Source: Phytoseiulus persimilis (lineage: Eukaryota > Arthropoda > Arachnida > Mesostigmata > Phytoseiidae). From it: DNA of 64,000 bases. Both the position numbers and the translations under genes were made by a program. Location: positions 124,001 to 188,000 of the forward strand of contig JAQZDE010000068.1 in assembly GCA_037576195.1 (NCBI GenBank), in the 5' to 3' direction. The notes below the pieces were generated by a model. It was given only the letters and a program-made list of their open reading frames with translations. It ran no database searches and had not been told where the DNA came from. Shown here piece after piece: positions 4,119-7,595 of this stretch; within the stretch, counting starts at the first letter, position 1; the number at the start of each line of letters is the position of its first letter.

Positions 4119-6070
4119 TTACTCATTTCCCTCTTCTTCCTCAGCCTCGTCCTCGTTAGGCACCTTGTAATAGACGAGCTCGAATGCGTCCTTGGTCGTG
4201 GCCACGACACGGAGCCAGTCACGAACACCGGCCTTCTTGAGGTACTTCTTGGTGAGATACTTCAGGTACCTGGAACGCGAGTGGCATCTTCAGCTATGTT
4301 CTACCAAGTAAAATCTACTCTGCGCGAAGAACTTCATCGAGTCTGACTGTAGCAAACTTTTCGGCACCAGCCTTTCCAAGCTTGGCAGGCTGGCTTCCTA
4401 GAAAGCCTTTGTTTTTCTCCTGAATTTCGAAGATGGCAGTCTCTAGAACCAGTAGAGTCCTACGACCGTGGCACAGGAGTAATGAAATCCGATAGCGAAA
4501 GCTCTCAACTTTCCGGGTGTCGCTCGAGTATTCGGCACCGATCTTAGGTTGGTTCCTAAGGTAGGCTTCCTAAACAGCGTTTCTGTTCTCCCGCATTCGA
4601 CTAAGATGGCAGTCCCTAGGCCTGCTGAGCGCTAAGGACCGTGGCGAGGGAGGATCACGAATGAAAACGTTGGGTGTTGCTCGAGTATTCGGCACCGAAC
4701 TTGGGTTGACTCCTTAGTCAGGCTTCCTAGACAGCGTTTGTGTACTCCTTTGTTCAACATGAATGGCAGTCTCCAGGCCTGTTCAGCACTGGAGACCGTG
4801 GCGTAGGAGAATAGATGACCTCAGTGACACTCACATGCGGTGCGAACACGCTCTAATCGAACGACATTAAAAGTAGCTCGGTGATTCTCACCTCTTGGAG
4901 AAGGCGATGTTGGATGTAACGAGAATCTTGTTCTTCTCACGTGACACGACGATGTCCTTGCCGAGGTTCATGGTCTTGTTGTTAACCTTGATCCTGCTGT
5001 TCAGGAAGGACTCCTGAAAAAACATTTCCCTAATGTAGAGTACGCGATCCTTATCTCGGAGTAGCGAGCGAAACCGGCACTAAAAAACATGGACCGAAGA
5101 TTTGTCAGCCAAGCATGAAACCAAATGCAGACACTCGAGTCCGAATCGGCGATTAACTGGTATGTTTCTATAGGGCTTTGTGTTTTTCAATGGAGGTATT
5201 CCGATCTGGGGATCGGATACTCCAGCCAAAAGCCCGAAGGGAATACTGGGAGCACAGTCAACGCGCAGCTGAATTCAGAGACAAATACAACGTCGTGTAC
5301 CGGCTGTGAACATGGAGACGGTGGCCCGAGGAAAGACGCTGTCCGGGTCGTAGCCTTGAGTTAGGGAACCGGGCTACTCGGCCAGCATTCTCAGCTTCCG
5401 CGGGTATGGCCTCGCAAAGTCTGAGCTACTGAACTTTTGAGCAAACCACTTACGAAGTCGCTGACTTTCATGATCCCATCCTCAACGGGGTGAGCACAGT
5501 CAACATAGTACTTCAGTTGACCTTTTTTGCCTCCGATCTTCTTGCCGGTGGCGGAGACTCCCTTCTTGGCCTTCTTGCCGGTCTTCTTTGCGGGTTTCTG
5601 GAATGGAGACCATCGCTGTTAGGAGCCGATCCCCATAGCAGAACGTACGATGAACCAGGTTTTTCAGGCTATTTGCGCAAGCGCCGTTTGACACGAATTA
5701 ACCGGGTCCCACGGTGATGCCACGTGCTCACACACGAGAGTCCCGGAACTTCGCACGGAAACTCGCGATGGTTGCATATCAAACCCTATCAACACGGCTC
5801 CAGAGAGGGAGTAAATCCACGATCACGGTACTGCGTGGTTTGCAGCGCGAGCGCACTGAATATTCATGGAAGTGAGGTGCAAACGTGGTACACGGACGGC
5901 CCACGTGCGAAAGGTGGAACAGGGCACGGAAACGGCGAACTTCGCTTTCTCTGGAAAGTCGACCGACCTTTCCTCCAGGAGATTCACCCCCAGCGGTTCA
6001 GAACCGCGATGCACCCATGAAACAGCGGCTTCGAGTCAAAAAAGTGTCTCTTACTTACAGCGGCAGCCAT
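4119..6070 (-). CDS. RpL22: Large ribosomal subunit protein eL22 (RpL22)
   Basis: Structural protein of the cytosolic 60S subunit that binds 28S rRNA at the surface. Exons are 6070-6059 (only MAAA), 5597-5454, 5013-4892 and 4269-4119, giving 142 residues. All donors and acceptors are consensus and the phases agree. The lysine-rich N-terminus (KKTGKKAKK) is followed by the conserved core: [28 protein letters not shown], the segment [32 protein letters not shown] and RDWLRVVA. It ends in the acidic tail typical of eL22 ([11 protein letters not shown]). A TOP-like start lies 27 nt upstream of the ATG. Introns 2 and 3 are unusually long for this window and carry four H/ACA-like hairpin RNAs in the sense direction, a common arrangement in ribosomal protein hosts. 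Confidence 0.97.
4345..4481 (-). ncRNA. H/ACA snoRNA-like, copy A in RpL22 intron 3
   Basis: Sense-oriented 137-nt hairpin-hinge-hairpin-tail structure. Hairpin 1 is closed by CTCCTG/CAGGAG. The hinge AAAACA fits box H (ANANNA). Hairpin 2 has a strong upper stem CCAGCCT/AGGCTGG, and the RNA ends in ACA plus three nucleotides (4350-4345). The pocket strands GCCACGG and CTGCCAT in hairpin 1, and TCTAGGAAGCC and GGTGCCGAA in hairpin 2, are shared with copies B and C. This layout fits a pseudouridylation guide; the target is not known. Identification rests on boxes and folding done by eye. Confidence 0.75.
4515..4655 (-). ncRNA. H/ACA snoRNA-like, copy B in RpL22 intron 3
   Basis: Second member of the tandem family, about 141 nt. 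Hairpin 1 closes with CCTCCC/GGGAG and has an upper stem TCCTTAG/CTAGGGA (one G-T pair) between the conserved pocket strands GCCACGG and CTGCCAT. The hinge ACAGAA matches box H. Hairpin 2 holds CTTAG/CTAAG. ACA lies at 4520-4518, three nucleotides from the proposed 3' end. Stem bases differ from copies A and C while pairing is kept, which argues for selection on structure. Confidence 0.75.
4672..4813 (-). ncRNA. H/ACA snoRNA-like, copy C in RpL22 intron 3
   Basis: Third, 5'-most member in the host intron, about 142 nt. Hairpin 1 closes with CTCCT/AGGAG and has a perfect 7-bp upper stem TCTCCAG/CTGGAGA, flanked by the same pocket strands as copies A and B. The hinge ACACAA matches box H. Hairpin 2 contains TGACT/AGTCA and ends with ACA at 4677-4675 plus three nucleotides. 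The spacing of copies (about 160-170 nt) suggests tandem duplication within the intron. Confidence 0.75.
5100..5237 (-). ncRNA. H/ACA snoRNA-like RNA in RpL22 intron 2
   Basis: A separate 138-nt H/ACA-like unit, sense to RpL22. Hairpin 1 has a basal stem GGGCTTT/AAAGCCC and an upper stem containing CCGATC/GATCGG. The hinge ATAGAA matches box H. Hairpin 2 is closed by a short CCAG/TTGG stem with an inner CGGAC/GTCTG stem. The tail is ACA at 5105-5103 plus three nucleotides. Its pocket sequences differ from the intron 3 family, so it would guide another site. Hairpin 2 is the weaker half. Confidence 0.65.
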
Positions 6071-6090
6071 CACGCCTGAGCCCTCCAAAC

Positions 6091-6097
6091 GAAAAGG
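6091..6097 (-). promoter_or_regulatory. TOP-like transcription start of RpL22
   Basis: The minus strand reads CCTTTTC directly upstream of a 20-nt purine-rich leader and the ATG. A C followed by pyrimidines at the mRNA 5' end is the terminal oligopyrimidine signal of ribosomal protein genes, which couples translation to growth signalling. The start site is inferred from the motif only. Confidence 0.5.
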
Positions 6098-7595
6098 CTC
6101 GACGAAGCGCAGACGATGCACAAATAGCCGTCTGCGACTGCAGCGCCCCCATTTTTCACGCCGGCGGCAGTTCAAACCAGAGATCGGACTTTTCACGAAA
6201 ACCGCCCTGAGAAGGAGTTGCACCCAACTAGAAGACTATCTGGCGCGTGCTCATCGACTCTGGACAAGCCCTCGTCGTAACTCTAGGGAAACTGATCGCA
6301 AATGTACTTTTCTCACGGAACTGTCAGCTCATTGGTAAGCCAGTTGGGTGGCTGAGAACTACCACCAGCACCACCACACACTGACTCCAACGACGACGAA
6401 GACGACGGCAGCCGACGAACTGAGTGTGGTGCTGCGAGAGAAGAGGATCCTCTGCCACCATCTTGCGGGATAGCCAGTGACAGCTGAGGAAATATTTGAA
6501 ATGCTGTTTTAAAGTCAACGATTCCGCAAACATCAAGGTAATAATCAGCTTGGAGGTCAGGACCCGTTCCTCCGCAATGTGTGAATTACGGAGAAATTGT
6601 GGAAACTCGAGTACTGTGATGAGTCAATTGAACACCCTTCAGAAAAGGGGGCGGATGTCATAGTGTGCATCCTCTGGTTTTTCATTGTTCGATAATCCTC
6701 CTTGAAGTCGCGGAATCCCCATGGCGTCTCGAGCGAAGATCGAAGCGTTCTGGCGCTTCAGGTTGCTGGTCTCGACTGGAGAACAGCGTCAAAGTTTCAT
6801 CCCCCGGTTCTATGCTGATTCAGCATTTTAGACGTTCGAAAGGAATCGAGTCTTGAAGTTCTCCTAGAAACACAGTCGAATCATGAAATACGAGCCTCCT
6901 CAGAGTATCGAATGAGCTGGATCCAGCGACATTCTCTTTTCGTCGGAGCCACTCGGATTAACCTGGAGGGTCGAATCGGGAGCGATCAACGGGGGAGGTT
7001 CGAGCTGGCGCTTTCAGTGCGGGTCAGGCTCTCAAAATTGCTCTCTTCCGTGGAATCGGCCGTGTTCTAGGATTGAACGGAGTCGACAGAATTCATGTTC
7101 ACCATCCGAATCGAATCAATGTTGAGCGGGCGTGGTGGCCGCAGGCATGAATAGACGGAGAAGGCCCGAGCTCAACTGTCTCGTCGCTTCGTCCAAAAGT
7201 CGCGCGAGAAGAACAACCGTTCTCCGCGAATAGCCGTGGTTAATATTGTTGATCTATGAATAGTATTCAGAGAGCGAATGTCATTCCGAAATGAGAACAG
7301 AGGCTCTCAATGGCCTCATATGTCTGCCCCAAGTGCTCGTGAGCGCACCACGTTTGTTCAATGGCCCAAGTGTCTCTTACGGTTCCTCGCCGCATCGGCC
7401 GTTCAAGGTTGTCGATCGATTCCATCAAACTATTCTGAAAATATTCCCGATCAGGCCACACTGAACTCTAGATTAACGGTCGCGGCGATCGAGGGGCCGT
7501 TCCCGGCATGAGTTTCCAAGTTTGAAGGTGTTCGGCATTCTACCACATCGCACCGTGATTGCTTCTGAGCTCATCCGCTTCTTTATCGCTTCCAG
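6098..7595. other. Divergent upstream region of RpL22 and AP-2 mu
   Basis: No recognisable coding sequence. The AP-2 mu ATG sits directly after a good acceptor (ctttatcgcttccag), so a 5' UTR exon and intron of that gene should lie in this stretch; I could not place the exon. Confidence 0.5.

What the first reader, a model, noticed from the sequence alone, without database searches (positions are those of the whole stretch)
4345..4813. Tandem family of three H/ACA snoRNA-like genes inside one RpL22 intron
Three sense-strand units of 137-142 nt each show hairpin, ANANNA hinge, hairpin, ACA plus three nucleotides. The proposed guide pockets (GCCACGG with CTGCCAT; TCTAGGAAGCC with GGTGCCGAA) are the same in all three, while the upper stems differ in sequence but still pair (TCTCCAG/CTGGAGA versus TCCTTAG/CTAGGGA). 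Kept pockets with changing but paired stems is what selection on a guide RNA predicts. Ribosomal protein introns are known snoRNA hosts; three copies with one predicted target in one intron would be a dosage array or an early stage of guide divergence.
Basis: partly seen in the sequence, partly recalled or inferred. Interest (0 to 1): 0.72.

Follow-up and report, generated by a model that had tools for sequence, protein, structure and literature searches.

The report
Three tandem U65-type H/ACA guide RNA genes
One intron of a ribosomal-protein gene carries three copies of what looks like a well-known small guide RNA that marks two sites in the ribosome's catalytic core; the RNA type is ordinary, and the local triplication is a modest variation on a known pattern.

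Summary
Three related units lie on the minus strand (A 4672-4813, B 4515-4656, C 4345-4483) in the last intron of a ribosomal protein eL22 gene (Pfam E 2e-43). Each has an ANANNA box and ACA plus three bases. All 20 guide-pocket columns tested are identical in the three units, against 52-74% identity elsewhere; hairpin 1 has compensated base changes.

With corrected edges, both pockets fit the two known U65/snR34 (SNORA65) sites, 54 nt apart at the peptidyl transferase centre: yeast Psi2826 and Psi2880. Pairing is 5+4 or 6+4 (hairpin 1) and 6+5 (hairpin 2). SNORA65 is the best snoRNA match of each unit (31.7, 18 and 17.6 bits); only C is significant, and none reaches the 70-bit cut-off.

So this is a diverged U65-type guide, triplicated in one intron. 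RP-intron hosts and duplicated snoRNAs are known. No expression data were available, and no intact 28S of the species was found. The canonical hairpin 2 is the lowest-energy shape only in C; in A and B it costs 3.5 and 2.4 kcal/mol. Interest is low.

The parts
4270..4891 (-). Last intron of the ribosomal protein eL22 (RpL22) gene, gtgag...cag, 622 nt, host of the three units
   Evidence: Splice edges read from sequence; joined exons match Pfam PF01776 with E 2e-43
4672..4813 (-). Unit A, H/ACA guide RNA gene of U65/snR34 type (hairpin 2 weak)
   Evidence: SNORA65 17.6 bits, E 0.32 when searched alone, not listed in the search of the whole intron
4515..4656 (-). Unit B, H/ACA guide RNA gene of U65/snR34 type
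   Evidence: SNORA65 18 bits, E 1.1
4345..4483 (-). Unit C, H/ACA guide RNA gene of U65/snR34 type, best match to SNORA65
   Evidence: SNORA65 31.7 bits, E 0.00078, full model 1-127
4798..4802 (-). Unit A hairpin 1 pocket, 5' guide GCCAC (B 4641-4645, C 4468-4472)
   Evidence: pairs with GUGGC of 28S
4764..4767 (-). Unit A hairpin 1 pocket, 3' guide GCCA (B 4607-4610, C 4434-4437)
   Evidence: pairs with UGGC before the target U
4724..4729 (-). Unit A hairpin 2 pocket, 5' guide TAGGAA (B 4567-4572, C 4395-4400)
   Evidence: pairs with UUCCUA of 28S
4689..4693 (-). Unit A hairpin 2 pocket, 3' guide GCCGA (B 4532-4536, C 4361-4365)
   Evidence: pairs with UCGGC before the target U
4738..4743 (-). 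Unit A H box ACACAA (B ACAGAA 4581-4586, C AAACAA 4409-4414)
   Evidence: Read from the alignment
4675..4677 (-). Unit A ACA box, three bases before the unit end (B 4518-4520, C 4348-4350)
   Evidence: Read from the alignment

Best explanation
The three units are paralogous box H/ACA guide RNA genes of the U65/snR34 type, made by local tandem duplication inside the last RpL22 intron. Shown: homology of the units, H and ACA boxes, invariant pockets that fit the two known U65/snR34 sites, and compensated stem changes in hairpin 1. Inferred: they are transcribed with RpL22 pre-mRNA, cut out after splicing and trimmed to snoRNAs of about 139-142 nt. Hairpin 1 then guides pseudouridylation at the equivalent of yeast Psi2826 (UGGC-Psi-U-GUGGC) and hairpin 2 at the equivalent of Psi2880 (UCGGC-Psi-C-UUCCUA). 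Three copies probably raise dosage or are redundant; nothing suggests a new target.
For: cmscan of the intron gives SNORA65 as best match of C over the whole model (31.7 bits, E 0.00078) and as best match of B (18 bits, E 1.1). A, searched alone, gives SNORA65 as its best snoRNA match (17.6 bits, E 0.32), below a non-snoRNA chance match. Hairpin 2 pairs 6+5 with the second U65 site in 4 of 4 eukaryotic 28S sequences, its best site in each; hairpin 1 pairs 5+4 or 6+4 exactly 54 nt upstream (the hairpin 1 site was part of the pattern that fetched these sequences, so its presence in them is by construction). In the one full LSU+SSU set (L012), with its group I intron masked, the U65 site is the only uridine that passes the 3+3 minimum for hairpin 1 in all three units, and the top one for hairpin 2. 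Shuffled hairpin 2 guides do as well in 17, 13 and 15 of 1500. Shuffled hairpin 1 guides score 9 or more at the site 54 nt upstream in 49, 31 and 48 of 200000. Chicken U65 has 6+5 pairs at 28S-3912 and a second site at 28S-3858, also 54 apart (PMC2653536 passages). snR34 directs Psi2826, and Psi2880 is among the marks missing in a yeast strain lacking snR34, snR52 and snR67 (PMC11121408 passages). The 20 pocket columns are invariant. RP genes are usual hosts: chicken U65 lies in RPL12 intron 4, and 27 Drosophila RP genes host snoRNAs (PMC2246290 passages).
Against: No unit reaches the Rfam cut-off of 70 bits, and the default cmscan of the window found nothing. The SNORA65 search of the own genome found no match, though its 14 controls were empty too. 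Hairpin 1 guides alone are weak evidence: shuffled guides reach its best score somewhere in the L012 rRNAs in 157, 152 and 238 of 1500 with the group I intron masked; unmasked, a uridine inside that intron scored higher than the U65 site. Hairpin 1 pairing (5+4 or 6+4) differs from the 7+3 printed for chicken U65. The distance from the hairpin 1 pocket to the H box is 23-24 nt, longer than the 14-16 nt I recall as usual. Hairpin 2 of A folds no better than shuffles, and the canonical hairpin 2 is not the lowest-energy shape in A or B. No intact 28S of the species was found, and no expression data were available.
Confidence: 0.88

Rival explanations
1. Only one or two copies (C, perhaps B) are working guides; A, or A and B, are decaying snoRNA pseudogenes carried in the intron.
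For: C alone scores significantly against SNORA65 and has strong hairpin 2 folding (z -4.19), while hairpin 2 of A is at z -0.22 and of B at -1.38.
Against: A and B keep all 20 pocket positions tested and the hairpin 1 stem through double changes, and the H and ACA boxes. The canonical hairpin 2 is reachable in A and B at a cost no greater than in C (3.5, 2.4 and 3.5 kcal/mol). Unconstrained decay at 74% identity elsewhere would not be expected to spare the pockets.
Confidence: 0.3
2. The array is not fully separated: trimming from the ends of the spliced intron leaves a composite RNA capped by H/ACA units at both ends (sno-lncRNA-like), perhaps as the main product.
For: Three units lie in one intron with only 15 and 31 nt between them. 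Two snoRNAs in one intron can give snoRNA-ended composite RNAs (PMC11028025 passages).
Against: No reads to test it; internal cutting could release single units. The invariant pockets of the middle unit suggest it works as a guide.
Confidence: 0.1
3. A tandem DNA repeat in an intron with chance hairpins, not an RNA gene.
For: Global folding energy is only mildly low (z -0.9 to -1.9).
Against: A significant match of C to SNORA65, pockets fitting both U65 sites 54 nt apart, invariant pockets and compensated pairs.
Confidence: 0.02

Closest known systems
SNORA65 / U65 (Rfam RF00302); chicken copy in RPL12 intron 4
   Same: Two-hairpin H/ACA layout, hairpin 2 blocks UAGGAA and GUGCCGAA, two 28S sites 54 nt apart, 6+5 pairing for hairpin 2, RP-gene intron host
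   Different: Scores below the family cut-off; hairpin 1 differs and pairs 5+4 or 6+4 rather than the printed 7+3; host is RpL22, not RPL12; three copies in one intron
snR34 of yeast
   Same: Target residue Psi2826, with Psi2880 among the marks lost when snR34, snR52 and snR67 are deleted (PMC11121408 passages)
   Different: Its sequence was not compared here
Intronic clusters of H/ACA snoRNAs in Drosophila (Huang et al. 2004 and 2005; only the titles seen, in the reference list of PMC2246290)
   Same: By title, multiple H/ACA snoRNA genes clustered in introns
   Different: Targets and number per intron could not be read; the 2005 paper is not held
Cis-duplicated snoRNAs in RP genes of sponges (PMC3412847 passages)
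   Same: An H/ACA snoRNA of RPL13A duplicated within its host gene, with essential elements and target sites kept despite low identity between species
   Different: There the copies lie in neighbouring introns, not in one

Membership tests
Box H/ACA guide RNA (class) | H box ANANNA between the hairpins and ACA three bases from the 3' end (motifs recalled) | tested here: met
   Present in 3 of 3 units
Box H/ACA guide RNA (class) | Two hairpins, each with an internal pocket | tested here: inconclusive
   C folds into both. Hairpin 1 with outer and upper stem forms in A and B when folded alone. Hairpin 2 in the canonical shape is not the lowest-energy fold of A or B but is reachable at 3.5 and 2.4 kcal/mol, as in C at 3.5 with the pocket open
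Box H/ACA guide RNA (class) | Pockets complementary to a substrate uridine on both sides | tested here: met
   Hairpin 2 6+5 in all three units; hairpin 1 5+4 or 6+4; hairpin 1 alone is weak against shuffles
Box H/ACA guide RNA (class) | About 14-16 nt from pocket to box (recalled) | tested here: inconclusive
   Hairpin 2 15-16 nt in all three; hairpin 1 23-24 nt, counted; in A part of this stretch folds into a small extra hairpin
Box H/ACA guide RNA (class) | Expressed small RNA bound to dyskerin/Cbf5, Nop10, Nhp2, Gar1 | not testable with these tools
   No reads or binding data available
U65/snR34 guides | Complementary to the two 28S sites 54 nt apart (yeast Psi2826 and Psi2880) | tested here: met
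   4 of 4 eukaryotic 28S sequences, the hairpin 1 site being there by construction of the search; the species' own intact 28S was not found
Rfam RF00302 SNORA65 | Score at or above the gathering cut-off of 70 bits | tested here: not met
   31.7, 18.0 and 17.6 bits
RP-gene intronic snoRNA | Sense orientation inside an RP intron | tested here: met
   Minus strand in the RpL22 last intron 4270-4891

The most novel reading that the evidence does not exclude
One intron encodes a selected dosage array of a peptidyl-transferase-centre guide, with three units released from a single intron by internal cutting, or kept as a composite H/ACA-capped RNA, so that RpL22 output and modification of two catalytic-centre uridines are tied together.
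Probability: 0.12. Interest if true: 0.4.

Novelty: new member of a known kind. Interest (0 to 1): 0.22.

Why it matters
It identifies a diverged U65/snR34-type guide that a default Rfam scan of the window misses, and gives its likely targets. The within-intron triplication, with frozen pockets and drifting but paired stems, is a natural example of selection on a guide RNA and a test case for how several H/ACA units are freed from one intron. It does not change the general picture of snoRNA biology.

Tried and rejected
The whole string was absent from the 7 loci scanned (L012-L018, both strands); only its 7-mers occurred, 9 times, scattered. Rejected: the htlv_FSE and mir-1537 matches on the + strand over the A stem; they score below their cut-offs and lie on the self-complementary stem. 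C also has weaker below-cut-off matches to two other H/ACA families, TtnuHACA28 (21.5 bits) and TB9Cs1H1 (15.1 bits). Rejected: chance tandem repeat. Rejected: a competing hairpin 1 site in L012, because it lies inside the group I intron found there.

Led nowhere: a 7-mer pattern over the genome, too common to inform; the SNORA65 family search of the own genome, whose controls were also empty; a search for further close copies, which returned only B itself and A and was too insensitive to list C; Rfam scan of 4890-6130, the rest of the gene, with 0 matches at E up to 2; a 28S pattern in viral contigs, 0 matches.

The own genome's rDNA on C2 gives a diverged SSU and an LSU that stops after ATGACTCTCTTATGG. 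No target region was found in it or in the next about 17 kb, so the target in the species' own 28S could not be tested. Eukaryotic 28S from contaminating contigs in four bacterial MAGs was used instead. L014 holds only part of the LSU and L015 two parts.

Corrected on the way: a first alignment ended unit C two bases early, and a first pocket count missed the hairpin 1 3' guide (16 columns, P 8.6e-6); the corrected figures are those. The folds gave C without its last 10 bases, and those without its last 2; one search used the full unit for hairpin 2.

Papers: searches; of the rows listed, none has a title or shown abstract describing U65 copies in an RpL22 intron. This is not a claim that none exists. 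Only passages were read, in PMC11121408, PMC2246290, PMC8096250, PMC1821038, PMC3412847, PMC2653536, PMC13228274 and PMC11028025.

Full report
What was checked. The gene lies on the minus strand. Its exons, read and joined from the window, match Ribosomal_L22e with E 2e-43, and eL22 chains of solved ribosomes. The last intron runs from 4891 down to 4270, with gtgag at its start and cag at its end. The three units lie in it in the same direction: A 4813-4672, B 4656-4515, C 4483-4345.

Anatomy. With ends set at ACA plus three bases the units are 142, 142 and 139 nt. Each has an H box that fits ANANNA (ACACAA, ACAGAA, AAACAA) and an ACA box. In hairpin 1 the outer stem CTCCT/AGGAG (CTCCC/GGGAG in B) and the base of the upper stem GGTC/GACT are kept in all. 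Between A and B, 3 of 17 hairpin 1 pairs change on both sides and remain paired, 1 changes on one side and none breaks. In C, 4 of the 17 are not standard pairs in this alignment; C folds its own upper stem. Of 6 hairpin 2 pairs tested, none varies between A and B and 1 is broken in C. The 20 pocket columns tested (GCCAC, GCCA, TAGGAA, GCCGA) are identical in all three units, against 77 of 143 columns overall. The hypergeometric P is 1.1e-6, indicative only, as the columns were chosen with the target known. Outside them identity is 91, 64 and 67 of 123 columns. Just outside, B reads TTTAGGAA where A and C read TCTAGGAA.

Folding, told fully. Whole-unit folds are modestly better than dinucleotide shuffles on the sense strand: z -1.19, -0.93 and -1.87, with 26, 42 and 6 of 200 shuffles as good (C was given without its last 10 bases). 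The opposite strand gives -0.28, 0.93 and -0.13. Hairpin by hairpin, against mononucleotide shuffles: A hairpin 1 -3.05, A hairpin 2 -0.22, B -0.79 and -1.38, C -1.18 and -4.19 (C without its last 2 bases). The canonical hairpin 2 is the lowest-energy fold only in C. With the pocket held open and the GCC/GGU stem held, it is reachable at a cost of 3.5 (A), 2.4 (B) and 3.5 (C) kcal/mol. Folding energy alone would not carry the claim.

Identity. A default cmscan of the window found nothing. On the intron alone, with permissive filters, C matches SNORA65 over its whole model with 31.7 bits, E 0.00078, and B with 18 bits, E 1.1. A was not listed in that search; searched alone it matches SNORA65 with 17.6 bits, E 0.32. 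Only the first is significant by itself, and none reaches the 70-bit cut-off. The shared blocks are UAGGAA and GUGCCGAA in hairpin 2.

Targets. No intact 28S of the species was found: a conserved 28S pattern and a 188-base 28S query gave nothing, and the rDNA found is a truncated, diverged LSU. I therefore used eukaryotic rRNA in four contigs found by a conserved 28S pattern and confirmed as eukaryotic LSU by cmscan. That pattern contains the hairpin 1 site, so its presence in them is by construction; the hairpin 2 site is not in the pattern and is present in 4 of 4. Hairpin 2 of all three units has its best match at UCGGC-U-C-UUCCUA with 6+5 pairs. Hairpin 1 pairs 5+4, or 6+4 for C in three of the four, with UGGC-U-U-GUGGC, exactly 54 nt upstream. 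In L012 another uridine scored higher for hairpin 1 (10.5 against 9.0 for A, 9.5 against 9.0 for B and C), but it lies at 5468, inside the group I intron at 5392-5807. With that intron masked, the U65 site is the only uridine in the L012 LSU and SSU that passes the 3+3 minimum for hairpin 1, in each of the three units.

Controls. With the intron masked, shuffled hairpin 2 guides reach the observed score in 17, 13 and 15 of 1500, and shuffled hairpin 1 guides reach theirs somewhere in 157, 152 and 238 of 1500. Unmasked the figures were 18, 24 and 22 of 2000 for hairpin 2, and 43, 130 and 205 of 2000 for hairpin 1. So hairpin 1 alone is weak evidence. Its strength is in position: shuffled hairpin 1 guides reach 9 at the site 54 nt upstream of the hairpin 2 site in only 49, 31 and 48 of 200000.

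Comparison. In chicken, U65 in RPL12 intron 4 guides 28S-3858 (7+3) and 28S-3912 (6+5), the latter also assigned to yeast snR34 (PMC2653536 passages). The separation of 54 and the 6+5 figure agree with the units here; the 7+3 does not. Yeast snR34 directs Psi2826, equivalent to E. coli Psi2457, near the peptidyl transferase centre; Psi2880 is among the marks lost in the strain lacking snR34, snR52 and snR67 (PMC11121408 passages). RP genes commonly host snoRNAs: 27 in Drosophila (PMC2246290 passages). Copies of snoRNAs arise in cis within one host gene (PMC2653536; PMC3412847; passages). Animals mostly keep one snoRNA per intron, with exceptions, and two in one intron may yield composite RNAs (PMC11028025 passages).

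Conclusion. The best reading is a U65/snR34-type H/ACA guide, triplicated inside one RpL22 intron, with both target complementarities retained by all three copies. Rfam's own membership criterion for SNORA65 is not met, so I call it U65-type by targets and pocket blocks, not a formal RF00302 member. Whether all three copies are expressed, and how three are released from one intron, is open.

Noticed in passing
L016:7184-9714 (own genome C2, minus strand), L017:282-2027: The rDNA found is a diverged unit (5.8S 58 bits, SSU 989.5 bits) whose LSU stops after ATGACTCTCTTATGG, which from memory is close to the insertion site of R2-type retrotransposons; no 3' LSU was found in the next about 17 kb. 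It may be an old inserted rDNA pseudogene.
   Followed up: partly
window 4694-4723 (unit A hairpin 2): The upper stem of hairpin 2 of A has two mismatched positions where B pairs CUUAGG with CCUAAG, although its pocket is intact; this may mark early decay of one copy.
   Followed up: partly
window 4738-4767 (and B, C equivalents): Hairpin 1 has 23-24 nt between pocket and H box in all three units, longer than I recall as usual; in A part of it can form a four-pair hairpin.
   Followed up: partly
window about 7597 onwards, plus strand: Coding sequence that reads by eye like the mu subunit of an AP-2 adaptor complex (recognised from memory, no call).
   Followed up: no
L012:5392-5807: Group I intron (Rfam RF00028, 95.8 bits) in a eukaryotic LSU carried in a contig filed as a Chloroflexota MAG, one of four eukaryotic rDNA contaminants of bacterial bins (L012-L015).
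   Followed up: partly
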